Assembly (NCBI GenBank): GCA_023823795.1
Contig: CP085711.1
Span: forward strand, 434,001-498,000
From: Bacillus sp. F19
GTDB lineage: Bacteria; Bacillota; Bacilli; Bacillales; Bacillaceae
Direction: 5' to 3'
DNA: 64,000 nucleotides
The translations under genes were made by a program, and so were the position numbers. Numbering within the stretch: the stretch's first letter is position 1; every line of letters begins with the position of its first letter. Shown piece by piece: positions 36,527 through 44,483 of this stretch. Below the pieces are notes generated by a model. That model saw only the letters and a program-made list of their open reading frames with translations, was not told the origin of the DNA and did no database searches.

Positions 36527-37353
36527 ATGAAACGACTAAAACCCTTAAATGATATTCTTTTCAAGAAGCTGTTTGGAGAGAATTAAGATAAAGATTTATT
36601 AATAGGATTCTTAAATGCAGTCTTAGAAAATGATGTTGAAGATTTGTACATTGTAGAAGAAAAGCTAAATAAAGAAAAAATTGATGATAAGCAAGGAATC
36701 CTTGATATAAAGGCCATTTGTTATACTGGAGAAAAAATTAATATAGAGGTCCAACTAGCAAATGAATACTACATGAAAGAGAGAACACTCTTTTATTGGT
36801 CAAAGCTGTTTACTGAAAATTTTAAAGCAGCTCAAAAATATTCAGATTTAAATAAAACCATTACCATCAATATCCTTGGATTTAATTACCTGACGGACAT
36901 TGAATCTTATCACTCGCGCTATAAGATTTACGAGGATCATTCCAAACAGCTTCTAACTGATTTGCTTGAAATTCATTTTATTGAAATGCCAAAATTCAAT
37001 GAAACGGATGTTGACCCTTGCATAGATGGTCATTATTTCTAAGAGGGGATTCGGTTAAGCCGCCTAATTTAGAGGAGGTGTTTATCTTGGATCAGTTAGT
37101 AGCAAAAGCAGAAGATAAACTACGCCGTTTAAGTGCTGACGAGGAAACTATCCGCATGTATCTGCTCCGAGAAAAATTTATTGCGGATCAAAAGACACAA
37201 ATTGAAGGTGCCAGGAATGATGGTATGAATGAAAAAGCCATTGAAATTGCTAAAAGCTTACTCAAAATACCAAGTATGTCCGTTCAAGATGTTGCAAACC
37301 ATACAGGGGTGCCTCTGCAAAAGATCAGGGAAATTGAAAGTGAAGTCCGATAA
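36527..37353 (+). pseudogene. Rpn-family (PD-(D/E)XK nuclease/transposase-like) gene, copy A, broken
   Basis: Starts MKRLKPLNDILFKKLFGEN after GAAGGAG, then an in-frame TAA at 36584 and continues with LLIGFLNAVLENDVEDLYIVEEK. The nuclease core is visible in ILDIKAICYTGEKINIEVQLAN, where D, and E-x-Q are the catalytic residues of this superfamily. Compared with copy B, about 10 bases are missing near 37015, shifting the frame; the C-terminal part then continues in another frame (AEDKLRRLSADEETIRMY and a short helix region). With one stop and one frameshift the gene is dead. Rpn proteins promote recombination and are often multi-copy. Confidence 0.82.
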
Positions 37354-37580: not shown

Positions 37581-37767
37581 TTAACATTAACAACAAAGTT
37601 AATATATATATCGACATATATATTAAAATACAGTGATTAATTAACATCAACAACAAAGTTAATATATGTATCTATATATATATTGAAATACAGTGATTAA
37701 TTAACATCAACAACAAAGTTAATATATGTATCGACATATATATACTAAAATACAGTGATTAATTAAT
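37581..37767. repeat. Three 60-bp tandem repeats
   Basis: Units start at 37581, 37641 and 37701, exactly 60 bases apart, each containing CAACAAAGTTAATATATRTA and ending with ATACAGTGATTAAT. A fourth, separated unit follows Rpn copy B at about 38805-38870. The element therefore travels with the Rpn duplication. Its function is unknown; iteron or protein-binding site are options. Confidence 0.8.
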
Positions 37768-37783
37768 ATTATATCCTTAGAGT

Positions 37784-38552
37784 ATTATTAATAGGATTCT
37801 TAAATGCAGTCTTAGAAAATGATGTTGAAGATTTGTACATTGTAGAAGAAAAGCTAAATAAAGAAAAAATTGATGATAAGCAAGGAATCCTTGATATAAA
37901 GGCCATTTGTTATACTGGAGAAAAAATTAATATAGAGGTCCAACTAGCAAATGAATACAACATGAAAGAGAGAACACTCTTTTATTGGTCAAAGCTGTTT
38001 ACTGAAAATTTTAAAGCAGCTCAAAAATATTCAGATTTAAATAAAACCATTACCATCAATATCCTTGGGTTTAATTATCTGACGGACATTGAATCTTATC
38101 ACTCGAGCTATAAGATTTACGAGGATCATTCCAAACAGCTTCTAACGGATTTGCTTGAAATTCATTTTATTGAAATGCCAAAATTCAATGAAACGGATGT
38201 TAATTTACATAATCCTTTGCATAGATGGTTATTATTTCTAAAAGGGGATTCGGTTAAACAGCCTAATTTAAAGGAGGTGTTTATCTTGGGTCAGTTAGTA
38301 GCAAAAGCAGAAGATAAACTACGCCGTTTAAGTGCTGACGAGGAAACTATCCGTATGTATCAGCTCCGAGAAAAATTTATTGCGGATCAAAAGACACAAA
38401 TTGAAGGTACCAGGAATGATGGTATGAATGAAAAAGCCATTGAAATTGCTAAAAGCTTATTCAAAATACCAAGTATGTCTGTTCAAGATGTTGTAAACCA
38501 TACAGGGTTGCCTCTGCAAAAGGTCAGGGAAATTGAAAGAGAAGTCCGATAA
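37784..38552 (+). pseudogene. Rpn-family gene, copy B, lacking its 5' end
   Basis: Nearly identical to copy A from codon 22 onwards and readable in one frame for about 255 codons (LLIGFLNAVLEND... to the C-terminal VREIEREVR). The first ~20 codons with start and ribosome binding site are missing, replaced by the tail of the 60-bp repeats. An internal TTG at 37833 could serve as start only with a loss of the N-terminal segment. The nuclease residues in ILDIKAICYTGE and IEVQLAN are intact, so this copy records the original protein sequence. Confidence 0.8.
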
Positions 38553-39406: not shown

Positions 39407-39700
39407 TCAGTAAACGACTTGCTGTTTTCCCCCTACATTTATGATCGTAGGATAGACCTTGTATTTTTCATTCACGTTGTGTTTTTCCTGCAGGGCATAA
39501 ACAAAGTCAGGTGAGTTGACACATGCCTGCAGAAGGTAATCTGCGAGCTCTGAGCGCGAAAAACCTGTACTGACTGCAAGAGCGTCTAATTTCTTTTCCG
39601 TATCATTGCTGACGGATATCGAGAACCTGCAGCATCGTTTTCCGCCTAATCCTTTTGTTTTCGCACTTTTCGATTTGTTGGGAACTTTAACTTTCGCCAT
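39407..39700 (-). CDS. Ribbon-helix-helix DNA-binding protein
   Basis: 97 residues. A basic N-terminus (KVKVPNKSKSAKTKG) is followed by CCRFSISVSNDTEKKLDALAV and TGFSRSELADYLLQACVN, the beta-strand and two helices of a CopG/Arc-type RHH domain, and a ~35-residue tail. GGAGGTTGATAAACA precedes the ATG. RHH proteins of this size are plasmid copy-number repressors, antitoxins or partition proteins. No toxin gene is next to it, so a repressor or segregation function is more likely. Confidence 0.65.
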   Translation of the reverse strand: MAKVKVPNKSKSAKTKGLGGKRCCRFSISVSNDTEKKLDALAVSTGFSRSELADYLLQACVNSPDFVYALQEKHNVNEKYKVYPTIINVGGKQQVVY

Positions 39701-40429
39701 TGTTTATCAACCTCCAAAAGTGAATGAGTGGTGCAGTGATGTTATAAGATATGTAGGACTCTCCTGGAAAAGAACAGTTCTGTATCATTTAACAAGGGTC
39801 TCTTTCCTAAAAGCTGAATGCTTTTATATGATGCACAGGCATCTCCTTATTACAAGAAGGAAATGAGGTACCAGAGGAATGTTTAGATAATGAAGGCTTA
39901 AAAACCAGTCTGTATGTCGAATATATGAAGGTGGTTTAACGGAAAAATAGAATCATTTTAGATCGCAAATATACAGAGGATCCGTACCACGAACATGGTG
40001 ATTGTTCGTGTTTTTGGCATGTCTGGTTTATGATAAATGGAGCAAAGACAAGCTTTTTAAATCTTTTTTTCTATAAATCAATGAATCTTACAATCATAAA
40101 AATGCTTTAAGATGCCCCCCCTCCCCCTCTTCTCCATACCCGTAATGTTAGATTTTTCTTAGATTTTTAGAAACGGTAAAGTGGTTCAGTGCATCAATAC
40201 AGCTGCTGCATCACGAAAGGGAGGAAGGAGATTATTTTCATTGTTCGTTTCATATGATAGTGAGGAGCTAGCAAATACACTATCTTACAAGCTAGCTCCT
40301 TGTAAAAAAGATTCCTAGAAAAAAACGAACATTCTCGACATTCTATAAAAGTGAGCATGGATTTTTTTCAGTCATATCCTTATATGGTTTTGAATATCCT
40401 ATAAAAATACGTCCGAAATGAGGGATCCT
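39701..40429. other. Long stretch without a recognised gene
   Basis: About 730 bases. Short frames exist but none has a convincing ribosome binding site or codon use. CACGAACATGGTGATTGTTCGTG at ~39987 is an imperfect dyad, and GAGGAGCTAGCAAATACAC with its complement near 40295 (GCTAGCTCCTTG) forms a hairpin. A run of C residues lies at ~40115. Confidence 0.4.
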
Positions 40430-40597
40430 ATGAGAGTGATTGCTAAGGTGCCAAATGATTTTGTTATTACTTTTGATGAAGAGGAATTTGTGGGGCTATC
40501 TGAAAGAGAAAAAGATCAGATTATCCATGCTGCGGTTAAAGAGATCGTATCTGAGCAAATCAGCTGGATTGAAGTACACGAAAAAATGGCTATCTAG
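40430..40597 (+). CDS. Hypothetical 55-residue acidic protein
   Basis: Reads MRVIAKVPNDFVITFDEEEF, then VGLSEREKDQIIHAAVKEIV and a short tail ending EKMAI. GAGGG lies 7 bases upstream, and a strong hairpin follows two bases after the stop, both supporting a real gene. A beta-hairpin plus one amphipathic helix is likely. No family recognised; the neighbours suggest a plasmid-borne accessory gene. Confidence 0.6.
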   Translation: MRVIAKVPNDFVITFDEEEFVGLSEREKDQIIHAAVKEIVSEQISWIEVHEKMAI

Positions 40598-40635: not shown

Positions 40636-40727
40636 ATTGAATTTTTCTTTTTATATATGAATGCGATTGGTGTTACTGAAAACGAAATTTATGGATTTCT
40701 CGATCCTAACCTATGTTTAGAGTGATT

Positions 40728-41352
40728 TCATCATTAACAATGACAATATTGTTATCAAAAACATATTTTTATTATCATAATTACTAATATATATCTGCAT
40801 TATATTCATCATTAACAATGACAATACTGTTATCATAAACATATGTTTTATTATCATAATTATAAGTACATATCTACATTATATTCATCATTAACAATGA
40901 CAATATTGTTATCATAAACATATATTTTATAATTATGATTACTGTATATATCTACATTATATTCATCATTAACAATGACAATATTGTTATCATAAACATA
41001 TATTTTATAATTATGATTACTGTATATATCTACATTATATTCATCATTAATAATGATAATATTGTTATCATGAACATATGTTTTATTATCATCATTACTA
41101 GTATATATCTACATTATATTCATCATTAATAATGACATTATTGTTATCATGAACATATGTCTTATTATCATCATTACTAGTATATATCTACATCATATTC
41201 ATTATTAACAATGACATTATTGCTATTATTAACATATGTTTTATTATCATCATTACTGATGTATATATCTACATTATATTCATCATTAACAATGACAATA
41301 TTGTTATCATAAACATATGTTTTATTATCATAATTACTGATGTATATATCTA
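40728..41352. repeat. Eight-unit ~78-bp repeat array (candidate plasmid centromere or iterons)
   Basis: Units begin at 40728, 40806, 40885, 40963, 41041, 41120, 41199 and 41280, spaced 78, 79, 78, 78, 79, 79 and 81 bases. Each contains TCATCATTAACAATGACAAT, then ATTGTTATCAT, then the palindrome AACATATGTT or a variant, then TATATCTACATTATA. The AACAAT/ATTGTT parts form a second dyad. It is not a CRISPR: there are no unique spacers. Its position about 1 kb from a parA/RHH pair and the regular spacing of about 7.5 helical turns suggest binding of a segregation or replication protein. Confidence 0.85.
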
Positions 41353-41646
41353 TAGTGCTCTTTATTTCGTTAATATTATTCTTGCATTATCAAAGTAGCT
41401 TTTATCCGTGTTTGGAGCACTATTTCGATGCAATAAGAACATCTATTGTGAATTAAGGTAACTAAGGTATTTCAAATAAATACAATAGAGAGGAAGCGTA
41501 ATATTCATGATAATTTAGGGAGAAATCAAATTCGATAATGGTATTAAAAATGAATTTCAACAGTAAAGCTTTTAAAGATACTCTAGCTTTTAGGTTCTGT
41601 TAAAACGCTTAATGCTGATTTTTTTAACACAAAGACTTAAATGAGA
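41353..41646. other. Non-coding stretch after the repeat array
   Basis: About 290 AT-rich bases with no recognisable gene. No unit of the array is seen past 41352. Confidence 0.4.
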
Positions 41647-42114
41647 TTATTCAAGCTCTTCTTGAGAGGGAGGCTCAAATAGCAGCATGTACTCTTTAAG
41701 GTTAGTCTCAGATAAGTGAAACGTACCTTGAGGAAGTTGAGCATTTCTTGCTGCAAGACGCTCTAAAAGCATCTCTTCAGTTGCATCTAAAAAATGTATC
41801 TTAAAGTCAGCTCCTAATTCTGCTGCTCGTGAGCGAAATTCATCTCGCTCGCTACGTCCCCAAAATCCAAAGTCTAAAATAACATCTACACCAAGAATTA
41901 AAACTCTATCAGCAACATCCCAAAGTAAACTTTCAACTAAGTCGTGTCTAGCATTATGATCCTTGTCATCCGTATCATGTCCAAACAAACGAATATGCCA
42001 TATGTCAGGAGTTAGACGAAGTGCAGAATATTTCTTTTCGAGTTTCTGCGCAAGGGTAGTTTTACCACTGCACGGCAGCCCAACCATTAAATGAAGTGTC
42101 GCGATAGTCCTCAC
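41647..42114 (-). CDS. P-loop kinase-like ATPase (AAA_33 / zeta-toxin-like fold)
   Basis: About 152 residues. Walker A LMVGLPCSGKTTLAQKLEKKY lies at the very N-terminus, then DIWHIRLFGHD, VDVILDFGFWGRSERDEFRSRA and FLDATEEMLLERLAARN, which carries arginines that could close over ATP. The fold is that of small kinases that phosphorylate alcohols or antibiotics. The start is unclear: GGAGGTGAGG sits where an initiation codon is expected at 42108, but the codon there is ATC; GTG at 42114 touches the box, and ATG at 42087 is 24 bases from it and would cut into the fold. The start codon may be mutated or non-standard. Confidence 0.75.
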   Translation of the reverse strand: MRTIATLHLMVGLPCSGKTTLAQKLEKKYSALRLTPDIWHIRLFGHDTDDKDHNARHDLVESLLWDVADRVLILGVDVILDFGFWGRSERDEFRSRAAELGADFKIHFLDATEEMLLERLAARNAQLPQGTFHLSETNLKEYMLLFEPPSQEELE

Positions 42115-42403
42115 CTCCAACAAGTAACGTACACAATGTCTAAACGATATATTTAGTTTAGCGTATTGTAACAAATTGATAATTACAAGATCATTTAAGT
42201 AAATTGTTTTTTTAACGAATGTTTTATAGTAGTTAAGCCACCTGTACTGTTCGTTTAAGAAAGAATAATAGATCAATATTATTCTTTAACACAGTGTTAT
42301 ATTAAAAAAAATCAATCAGGATAAACCTGATTGATCTTTTATCTGATAAAAAGTAAAATTCACTTTAGTTTGAATGGGGTTTTGAGAAACTAATTCATTC
42401 GTT

Positions 42404-42901
42404 CTATCTTGAAGATTTTCCTTCGATAACCCCGTATTCTTCCAATAACTTTCTAATGGCCGCATTGATGAGCTTGGATTTGTCTCCTTTTTCCCCTCTT
42501 GCTGCGATTTTGTCTACTTCTGCAGCTAAGTCCGGATCCATATAAAAAGAGGTGAATACCTTCTTCACTTTTTTCTTTGATGGTTTTTTCCCAGCGACTA
42601 AATCACGAAGATAATCATCATCGTTGTTATCGTCAATGTCAATAATATCAGTAACGTTATTATTAACAACATCAATGTTGTCTTTTTTAACATATGTGTT
42701 GTTGTTAACTTTATCAGTAACATTATTATTATTATTTTCTTTATTTTTGTCATTATTATTAATTATATTTTCATGATTGAGATTGTCATTAACATTGTTG
42801 TCTGATTTCTCATCTGTTTTTTCTGTATCATATGAGTTAAAAAAAGCTTGTGTAGCATTTGGTTTTTTAATTTTATCTTTGAGGCTGTTTTTGGTTGACA
42901 C
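42404..42901 (-). CDS. Asn-rich ribbon-helix-helix protein, candidate ParB-like centromere-binding partner
   Basis: 165 residues with a GTG start preceded by GGAGCTGAAAG. Residues ~30-100 are low-complexity, dominated by Asn, Asp and Val (NNNDKNKENNNNNVTDKVNN). The last ~60 residues are structured: KKVFTSFYMDPDLAAEVDKIAARGEKGDKSKLINAAIRKLLEEYGV is an RHH domain. Type Ib plasmid partition systems pair a ParA with a small RHH protein that binds centromere repeats. The gene overlaps the end of the parA gene by 29 bases, so the pair is translationally coupled. The disordered Asn linker is unusually long for such a protein. Confidence 0.75.
   Translation of the reverse strand: MSTKNSLKDKIKKPNATQAFFNSYDTEKTDEKSDNNVNDNLNHENIINNNDKNKENNNNNVTDKVNNNTYVKKDNIDVVNNNVTDIIDIDDNNDDDYLRDLVAGKKPSKKKVKKVFTSFYMDPDLAAEVDKIAARGEKGDKSKLINAAIRKLLEEYGVIEGKSSR
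42689..42703. repeat. Array-like motif inside the RHH gene
   Basis: ACATATGTGTTGTTG within the Asn-rich coding part resembles ACATATGTTGTTG at 43740 and 43997 upstream of parA and the AACATATGTT core of the eight-unit array. It may be an intragenic binding site. Confidence 0.4.
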
Positions 42902-43670
42902 GGTCTTTCAGCTCCTTCACAAATGGTATGTAGTATTCTAATGCATTTTTTAATTCGGAATTTCCATCAAAACCTGAAATGGCTAATCGTCTAGTAGATG
43001 CTTTTCTTCTTATAATTGAATTAAACATTAATCCAGGATAATCTTCTTGAATGGCTTCTTCCATTACTTCATTTTCTTTAGCTCTAGCATCAATTAAAGA
43101 AAATAAGACCCCGGCAGTTTTTAATGCTGGATTATATCGCTCTTTTGCACCTTCAATAATCTCTAAGAATTTAGGAATGGCATAATATGCAAACATCGAT
43201 CCATCAAACATGACTACAGCATAACTTCCAGCTTCTGAATATGTACTTAATGGCATGACTGTCTGCTCAGATAACGCTGGAGGTGTATCGATAATTATCC
43301 AATCATAATCCTCCATGACAGGCTGAAGAGCTTTTTGTAGGGCATCTAATTTTAACCCTTTTTCAAACATTCTTCGTGGTAATGTTGCCAAGAAATCATT
43401 TGATGGTATTAAATCTAAATTCTCTTGGATCTTAATGATATAAGAACGTGCATCTTCTTCTAAGATGGCCTCAAGAATGGTTTTCTCCTCGAAGACATTG
43501 CATATATCATATTCGCCAGTTAAAAAGCTGGTTAAGTTTCCTTGCCCGTCCATATCAATGGCTAAAACTTTATCTTCCTTACTTAATAGATAGGAAGTAA
43601 TTCCACTGCTGGTAGACTTTGAACAGCCACCCTTACTTATACCGAATGTTACTATTTTTGCTGCCAACAT
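42873..43670 (-). CDS. parA: ParA-type partition ATPase
   Basis: About 265 residues. The deviant Walker A is FGISKGGCSKSTSSG (KGGxxKS), Walker A' lies in AIDMDGQGNLTSFL, and Walker B in YDWIIIDTPPALSEQTVMPL, as in ParA/Soj/MinD ATPases. It lacks a long N-terminal HTH, so it belongs to the small ParA type that relies on a partner for autoregulation. It would form a nucleoid-bound gradient to segregate DNA carrying the centromere. GAGG precedes the ATG by 5 bases; TTG one codon later is an alternative start. The partner is the overlapping RHH gene. Chromosomal Soj has a ParB with a different fold, so this is a plasmid-type system. Confidence 0.88.
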   Translation of the reverse strand: MLAAKIVTFGISKGGCSKSTSSGITSYLLSKEDKVLAIDMDGQGNLTSFLTGEYDICNVFEEKTILEAILEEDARSYIIKIQENLDLIPSNDFLATLPRRMFEKGLKLDALQKALQPVMEDYDWIIIDTPPALSEQTVMPLSTYSEAGSYAVVMFDGSMFAYYAIPKFLEIIEGAKERYNPALKTAGVLFSLIDARAKENEVMEEAIQEDYPGLMFNSIIRRKASTRRLAISGFDGNSELKNALEYYIPFVKELKDRVNQKQPQR

Positions 43671-44277
43671 TAACACCTCTTTTTCTTATTCTAATAATAC
43701 ATCTGAAATTGTTGTTTCTAAATATATAATTATATTAAAACATATGTTGTTGTATATGTCATTTTATATATTAGCACATATAAATATATTGAATTTAAGG
43801 CTTCCTTTACTAATCTTATTAACTGAAGTTTTTTTACATAATAATGCAATTTTTTTATTACACTAAATATATGTTAATATATATGTTAATACATAATATG
43901 CATATATTGTTAAGTTATTATTAGAAACAAAATGTATCAATAAATTGTTGATAGATATATAGTCAATAACATTTTATAAATTAATTACAGTAGCAACATA
44001 TATGTTGTTGTATATGATAAAAACGTTAATATTTATGAAAATGTTATATAACATAAATTTGTTTTTGGTATCATACAGTGATTTATCATTATTGTTGTTT
44101 ATAATGTTAATATATATGCGGACATATATTTTAATATATAGACTATCTATAACAATAACATTAGTTATAAACGATAACTTAGAAAACTATTTTAAATCAA
44201 TGTATATTTTGACATATATGATAATGATAATGTTAATACATAAAATAATATTGCTTGCGTTGTATAAGAAAGGACTA
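43671..44277. other. Very AT-rich region upstream of parA with repeated TATATGTTGTTGTATATG-like motifs
   Basis: Contains two copies of an ACATATGTTGTTGTATATG pattern, at 43740 and 43996, and several ATATATGTTAATATA stretches. AT content is extreme. It includes the parA promoter and could be a binding region for the RHH protein or an unwinding element of a plasmid origin. Open frames here are compositional artefacts; no replication initiator was seen. Confidence 0.5.
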
Positions 44278-44483
44278 TTCAGCAAAGGTTATTTTCTTTG
44301 ATCATATGGAAGGGTGTCTCGTTAATGCTGTCTAGTGGGTGACGGCCGTAGGGATTGCAAATGTCGTATTAGCAGTCTACATGGCTGTCTTCATGGACAT
44401 CGGGGTTGGTGCTTCATCCCTGATTGCCCGTAATATAGGAGCTGGTAACATGAGTAAGGCAAAGACTGTTGCGAAACAATCAT
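44278..44483 (+). pseudogene. Scrambled partial duplicate of the csoR-MATE region
   Basis: Bases 44278-44330 are almost identical to 51501-51553 in the csoR gene, and 44331-44483 to about 51773-51926 in the MATE gene. The ~220 bases between these segments in the original are deleted. There are a handful of substitutions, so the copying is fairly recent. The piece ends abruptly at the IS3 remnant. It has no coding capacity. Confidence 0.85.

What the first reader, a model, noticed from the sequence alone, without database searches (positions are those of the whole stretch)
40728..43670. Partition-like locus: ParA, Asn-rich RHH partner and an eight-unit 78-bp array
A small ParA overlaps a gene for an RHH protein with a ~70-residue Asn-rich linker, and eight near-identical 78-81 bp units with two internal dyads lie about 1 kb downstream. 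Type Ib partition systems have short RHH partners and centromere repeats, but the long Asn linker and the unusually long repeat unit differ from known examples. This may be a new centromere type, and it implies that the window is or was plasmid DNA.
Basis: partly seen in the sequence, partly recalled or inferred. Interest (0 to 1): 0.75.

Follow-up and report, generated by a model that had tools for sequence, protein, structure and literature searches.

The report
Partition locus with candidate repeat centromere
This looks like the machinery by which a large plasmid of soil bacteria is passed to both daughter cells; its repeat array is probably part of the anchoring site, and in some related plasmids the anchor protein's own gene seems to contain a copy of that site, which might explain the protein's odd repetitive stretch.

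Summary
In detail: parA (42873-43670, -), an overlapping RHH gene with Asn-rich linker (42404-42901, -), and 7.9 units of 78-81 bp at 40727-41352. The window lies on a 507-kb second replicon; its nearest named relative is the circular 362-kb plasmid pBY2G20. A type Ib-like partition module is the best reading; binding and stabilisation are untested.

The tandem 78-bp form is local. A matrix from five window units finds, as its five best sites in all of pBY2G20, four in the same intergenic gap and one in the RHH linker; 0 of 200 triplet-permuted matrices do so. G050 also has the site there; G046 is marginal and G049 not above control. Array and gap carry a strong 3-bp phase (z 12.6, 11.9); an earlier 6-bp reading failed for them but holds in some relatives.

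Across 30 loci, linker-coding DNA matches its own plasmid's flanks better than others' (1 of 20,000 permutations; 52 of 20,000 without four loci noticed beforehand). For the window's own linker support is weak (p about 0.02). Site-in-gene remains a suggestive hypothesis.

The parts
40727..41352 (.). Array of 7.9 units of 78-81 bp; candidate centromere or part of it; strong 3-bp phase; tandem form seen only here
42404..42901 (-). Candidate centromere-binding protein (CBP): N-terminal VSTKNSLKDKIKKP, Asn-rich linker, C-terminal RHH
42653..42697 (-). Array-like 45-bp stretch inside the linker-coding part of the CBP gene (begins ACATATGTT, coding Thr-Tyr-Val); best match to the array matrix on the replicon outside the array
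42873..43670 (-). parA, deviant Walker ATPase
41647..42114 (-). AAA_33 kinase-like gene between CBP and array; also in pBY2G20, in pieces in G050, no hit at four other close loci
43677..44400 (.). AT-rich region upstream of parA with ACATATGT at 43740-43747; candidate operator
40418..40597 (+). 59-aa gene next to the array, also at the pBY2G20, G050, G046 and G049 (L047) loci
39407..39700 (-). Second small RHH gene (97 aa), also at the pBY2G20, G046 and G049 (L047) loci, no hit at G050; rival binder of the array

Best explanation
A type Ib-like plasmid partition module. Inferred: RHH dimers bind runs of short AT-rich subsites in the array, upstream of parA and perhaps in their own gene; this represses the operon and marks the plasmid as cargo; the lysine-rich N-terminal peptide of the RHH protein stimulates ParA on the nucleoid, so copies are pulled apart. 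Shown: the gene pair and its order in relatives, its place on large plasmids, conserved motif in the same gap in two relatives, own-flank similarity of linker-coding DNA in part of the family. Not shown: binding, ATPase stimulation, stabilisation, or the length of the subsite. The eight-unit array is a local amplification of one segment of that cluster.
For: ParA aligns over nearly its whole length with delta of pSM19035 (2oze, E 7.7e-15); Walker lysines K11 and K16 invariant in 10 of 10. The RHH domain is above cut-off. The pair is on records titled complete plasmid and on a phage. It is the only match on C2 at E up to 0.001; the other is on C1, 28%. Array matrix on pBY2G20: top five sites of both strands are 27.3, 26.2, 20.0, 15.2 in the gap 138000-138829 and 16.8 in the CBP linker; next 12.5. 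0 of 200 column-permuted and 0 of 200 triplet-permuted matrices reach 27.3, and 0 of 200 of each place all five at par. Triplet-permuted control of single gaps: pBY2G20 0/500, G050 0/500, G046 23/500. G050 has the site but no hit to the 97-aa RHH in its 18-kb stretch, so the CBP is the likelier binder.
Against: No binding or stability data. Reviewed type Ib centromeres lie upstream of the operon (PMC5016525, passages); here the array is about 1 kb downstream past another gene. Triplet-permuted matrices also drift to this locus (mean 1.67 of top five; CBP in the top five in 89 of 200), so part of the signal is low-complexity triplets. Gap or upstream sites of L047 (139/500), L048 (94/500), L005 (37/500) and L049 (101/500) are not clearly above that control. 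Only 3 of 10 partner proteins match Pfam RHH_1 at E up to 0.1; for the rest RHH rests on alignment. No arginine finger identified.
Confidence: 0.8

Rival explanations
1. The array is a replication origin (iterons).
For: Tandem AT-rich repeats; GC skew of C2 changes sign around this region. In pBY2G20 the only 10-kb bin with negative skew (-0.015) is 130-140 kb, which holds part of the par locus.
Against: The shared Rep-like gene (called primase C-terminal in pBY2G20; Rep by inference) is about 58 kb away (C2 415039-416595). In pBY2G20 the 36 other bins are positive, so there is no lasting switch at par; the 40-kb negative block of C2 is better read as inserted or inverted.
Confidence: 0.07
2. 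The array is the target of the neighbouring 97-aa RHH protein and not of the CBP.
For: That gene is conserved beside the gap in pBY2G20, G046 and L047.
Against: No hit at the G050 locus, which has the best gap site (38.9, 0/500), nor at L005 and L048.
Confidence: 0.07
3. The array is a neutral tandem expansion in AT-rich DNA.
For: Near-identical units; no tandem form in the same gap of four close relatives.
Against: The motif persists in the pBY2G20 and G050 gaps.
Confidence: 0.06
4. On the linker alone (a separate question): its DNA resembles the sites because of shared low-complexity triplets, or because site and linker were copied from each other without function. The strong 3-bp phase of the noncoding array and gap would also fit descent from linker-coding DNA.
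For: Synonymous shuffles reach the score in 37% (window), 34, 17, 6.6, 1.3, 1.3, 10, 6.8 and 35% of 1000 trials. Codon positions diverge as in ordinary coding DNA (linker 0.73, 0.82, 0.57; rest 0.91, 0.95, 0.64). 12-mer sharing mostly not significant. 14 of 200 triplet-permuted matrices reach the linker's score on masked C2. 23 of 30 loci do not reach z 3.
Against: Own-versus-other-flank permutations 1 of 20,000, and 52 of 20,000 without loci noticed beforehand; shared words differ by lineage; all nine linkers score above their synonymous mean.
Confidence: 0.6

Closest known systems
pSM19035 delta/omega (type Ib)
   Same: Small ParA plus RHH protein in Firmicutes; ParA aligns with delta (2oze)
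   Different: Contiguous 7-bp heptads, at least four needed (PMC9499535, passages); the array here has 3-bp phase and depressed lag 7
TP228 ParF/ParG with parH
   Same: Type Ib; flexible N-terminus and C-terminal RHH; repeats with AT-rich spacers (PMC5016525, passages)
   Different: No site inside the CBP gene mentioned in the passages read
RelB/relO
   Same: RHH dimers on hexad repeats, 12-bp half-sites (PMC2812701, abstract and passages): precedent for the 6-bp phase seen in some relatives
   Different: Toxin-antitoxin operator, not partition
F sopC and B. subtilis parS-359
   Same: sopC: long iterons holding short inverted repeats (PMC5016525, passages); parS-359 lies within parB (PMC4442127, one passage)
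   Different: HTH-type ParB (recalled for these two proteins)
SegAB of Sulfolobales
   Same: ParA-type ATPase plus RHH protein; in one species SegB sites also lie within segAB (PMC12284271, passages)
   Different: 13-bp palindrome scattered over the chromosome

Membership tests
Type Ib plasmid partition | Small ParA with deviant Walker A and no N-terminal HTH domain | tested here: met
   About 265 aa; K11, G12, G13, K16 invariant in 10 of 10; no DNA-binding domain among Pfam matches
Type Ib plasmid partition | Small CBP with unstructured N-terminus and C-terminal RHH | tested here: met
   RHH_1 above cut-off at the C-terminus of the window protein; disorder inferred from composition only, structure prediction was off; 3 of 10 family members match RHH_1
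Type Ib plasmid partition | Arginine finger in the CBP N-terminus | tested here: inconclusive
   LKDKIKK-like start, Lys or Arg varies
Type Ib plasmid partition | Centromere of direct and inverted repeats upstream of the operon | tested here: inconclusive
   Upstream arrays in three relatives; main array downstream here
Type Ib plasmid partition | CBP binds the site, stimulates ParA, stabilises the plasmid | not testable with these tools
   needs bench work
pSM19035 omega/parS | 7-bp heptad repeats | tested here: not met
   array lag-7 z -4.2; 3-bp phase z 12.6
PrgP equivalog NF041283 | Score above the curated cut-off | tested here: not met
   63.3 bits against 400
Iteron-type replication origin | Rep gene beside the repeats | tested here: inconclusive
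   Nearest gene taken for Rep is about 58 kb away; the small genes around the array were not tested for initiator function

The most novel reading that the evidence does not exclude
A family of partition systems in which the centromere-binding protein's own gene is part of the centromere: site words lie in frame in the linker, so that the linker's residues (Asn; His/Asn/Asp; Val-Asn; Glu/Lys/Asn) are a by-product of the DNA motif each plasmid uses, and site and linker change together as plasmids diverge.
Probability: 0.3. Interest if true: 0.82.

Novelty: new variant of a known kind. Interest (0 to 1): 0.55.

Why it matters
If the bold reading is right, a low-complexity protein stretch would be explained by a DNA signal it must encode, and a plasmid's partition site could be read from its CBP gene. 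The series of related plasmids with the same genes and changing motifs would suit a study of how incompatibility groups split. Even if not, this gives a partition module with a defined candidate site for large Bacillaceae plasmids.

Tried and rejected
6-bp phase of the array: I took lag-6 identity (z 7.2 array, 5.3 pBY2G20 gap; 80 control windows mean 0.5, max 3.45) as a 6-bp phase; setting lags 6, 12, 18, 24 against 3, 9, 15, 21 showed a 3-bp phase instead (array six-over-three z 1.4, gap -1.2; three-bp z 12.6 and 11.9; controls max 2.30 and 6.39). The control windows are less AT-rich (GC 0.221-0.305) than array and gap (0.200, 0.206). Because of this and I lowered the novel reading from 0.4 to 0.3 and interest from 0.6 to 0.55.

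Own-flank test: one search used site regions picked by eye for winr, L048, L005 and L049 (8 of 30 above z 3, permutations 0 of 20,000; subset 5 of 20,000). One search repeats it with the same flanks for all and is the one to use. Column-permuted controls are too lenient where DNA has triplet phase; replace them. Origin at par from GC skew: not upheld by pBY2G20. RNA element: three weak Rfam matches, none at gathering score. 12-mer sharing (27 rows) mostly not significant; one search timed out. Synonymous and codon-position tests gave no clear DNA-level constraint. For the window, linker against 450 bp up and 600 bp down: p 0.77 and 0.53 (the array is outside); z 1.74, rank 11 of 30, with the array region included; L005 z -0.11.

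Rows dropped: L010 (broken) and L145 (no partner found) from the linker tests; the 30 loci were picked by hand from the 37 pairs (close copies left out); L052, L054-L126 and L148-L174 were not examined beyond the listing, except L052. Partner genes were taken as the longest frame starting from 70 nt before to 60 nt after the parA end, so adjacency there is by construction.

Searches behind 'no report of a linker/site match found': (listings, some capped: 20 of 42, 10 of 3,774, 12 of 13); passages of six papers read. Most subscription papers are not in that library.

Full report
What is there. The array is real: 40727-41352, period 79, 7.9 copies, 91% matches, spacings 78-81, one match in the assembly. 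Beyond a small AAA_33 kinase-like gene lie the RHH gene and parA. The window is part of a 507,307-bp contig; the other contig of this two-contig assembly has 5,085,462 bp. Nearest named records are circular plasmids: pBY2G20 of Metabacillus dongyingensis, 362 kb, ParA 97.8%, and a 250-kb plasmid filed as Arthrobacter citreus, 88%. So the plasmid inference is right.

The module. Of 81 genomes of the family, 6 have a close ParA (E at most 1e-50), 5 of them among the 8 of the same genus, the window's own included. The partners share a short lysine-rich start, a linker of variable length and, where detectable, a C-terminal RHH; Pfam RHH_1 is matched by 3 of 10 at E up to 0.1. Asn content is at least 13.8% in all 11 loci with ParA at least 69% identical and an unbroken partner, at most 12.1% in the other 21. 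ParA matches delta of pSM19035; the nearest NCBIfam equivalog is far below cut-off. I file it as type Ib-like, function untested.

The site cluster. Between the 59-aa gene and the kinase/CBP block, C2 has the array and pBY2G20 about 830 bp that do not align as a whole. A profile of the units hits pBY2G20 only there at E below 1 (4.5e-6, 0.0035, 0.16). A 45-bp matrix from five units gives as the five best sites of pBY2G20, both strands, four in that gap and one in the CBP linker (27.3, 26.2, 20.0, 16.8, 15.2; next 12.5). No column-permuted and no triplet-permuted matrix of 200 each reaches 27.3 or places all five at par, though triplet-permuted ones place 1.67 of five there on average, with the CBP gene in the top five in 89 of 200. 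Single gaps against triplet-permuted matrices: pBY2G20 0/500, G050 0/500, G046 23/500, L047 139/500, L048 94/500; upstream regions L005 37/500, L049 101/500. So the motif in the gap is firm for two relatives, marginal for one and not shown for the rest. Tandem forms elsewhere: 119 bp x 3.6 upstream in G050, 125 bp x 3.4 upstream in the plasmid filed as A. citreus, 102 bp x 2.8 upstream in Mesobacillus foraminis and 343 bp x 5.5 downstream in Neobacillus pocheonensis. The 78-bp unit is one local form.

Phase. The noncoding array and the pBY2G20 gap have a strong 3-bp phase (z 12.6 and 11.9; 80 AT-rich control windows mean 1.68, max 6.39), without excess of 6 over 3 (1.4, -1.2). A true 6-bp phase is seen in other regions: the window's own 60-bp array 5.4, G050 upstream 5.0, L140 7.1, L182 5.0, L178 5.0, L138 4.4, L008 downstream 5.1; controls max 2.30. 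The rest are lower: the region upstream of the window's parA 2.5, L047 upstream 2.5, L005 upstream 2.4, L142 2.1, L004 upstream 2.0, the others at or below 1.7. RelB, an RHH protein, binds 6-bp repeats (PMC2812701, abstract and passages), and omega binds 7-bp heptads (PMC9499535, passages). A 3-bp phase in noncoding DNA fits either subsites made of like triplets or descent from linker-coding DNA; I cannot tell which.

The linker. After the eight units, the best match to the matrix in 507 kb is in the CBP linker (18.6; next 13.0), but on masked C2 14 of 200 triplet-permuted matrices do as well. Triplet-permuted p for nine linkers: window 0.019, L004 0.022, L132 0.024, L133r 0/1000, L047 0.046, L048 0.032, L005 0.001, L049 0.019, L007 0.227; the first five are close relatives. 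ACATATGT is kept in 6 of 9, in frame as Thr-Tyr-Val. Synonymous shuffles and codon positions show no clear DNA-level constraint. For the window alone the case is weak.

Across the family. For 30 loci I compared linker-coding DNA with own and foreign flanks (450 bp up, 600 bp down), scaled by codon-order shuffles. Own z exceeds 3 in 7 of 30 (L136, L135, L137, L008, L049, L140, L051), against 49 of 870 foreign pairs; own flank ranks first of 30 in four of the seven; mean own z 1.81 against 0.36; permutations reach the mean in 1 of 20,000 and the count in 12. Without four loci noticed before the test: 3 of 26, mean reached in 52 of 20,000, count in 1209. The window scores -0.8 there because its array lies beyond the flank. 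The words differ by lineage: L140 has TACGTAAACG-type words upstream and in a linker reading VYVNVNDDVNVHVNVDEK; L135 shares an exact 22-bp word between upstream region and linker; L136, L008 and L051 have others. Where the effect is present, the linker's make-up follows the plasmid's motif.

Mechanism and verdict. Most likely (0.8) a working partition module whose RHH protein lines up on short AT-rich subsites of the array and the parA upstream region, with ParA as motor. Every binding and motor step is inference. That the CBP gene itself is part of the centromere I put at 0.3. Sites in CBP genes have precedents: parS-359 within B. subtilis parB (PMC4442127, one passage) and SegB sites within segAB in one archaeon (PMC12284271, passages).

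Noticed in passing
window 37581-37766: A second array, 60 bp x 3.1 (92% matches), with a true 6-bp phase (six-over-three z 5.4), beside two Rpn-type genes.
   Followed up: partly
window 36644-37353 and 37833-38552: Two similar Rpn family genes; the first is split over two frames, the second is one open frame.
   Followed up: no
window about 1-34500: GC skew is negative in this block (C2 about 430-470 kb) while nearly all other 10-kb bins of the replicon are positive; looks like an inserted or inverted segment.
   Followed up: partly
L007 5902-6000: The annotated ParA of pSH-B74 (and p9912D) starts about 99 nt before the usual start; the extra His/Asn run looks like translated upstream-site DNA (inference).
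   Followed up: partly
L010 5525-6500: In B. velezensis Mr12 plasmid p1 the parA and CBP frames are broken; a 121-bp x 5.5 array 3 kb downstream is GC-rich and unlike the sites.
   Followed up: no
L186 3294-4472: The Alicyclobacillus acidoterrestris partner has about 400 aa with many near-copies of a short Ser/Asn/Glu-rich repeat in the linker.
   Followed up: no
L048 10255-12103: The Neobacillus pocheonensis 343-bp array lies on a 1.44-Mb contig; chromosome or chromid not resolved.
   Followed up: no
L005: The plasmid filed as Arthrobacter citreus NEB 577 carries an 88% identical ParA and is probably from a Bacillales host (inference).
   Followed up: no
L132 7913-8097: The AAA_33 gene beside par is in pieces in G050 and has no hit at the loci of G046, L047, L005 and L048.
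   Followed up: partly
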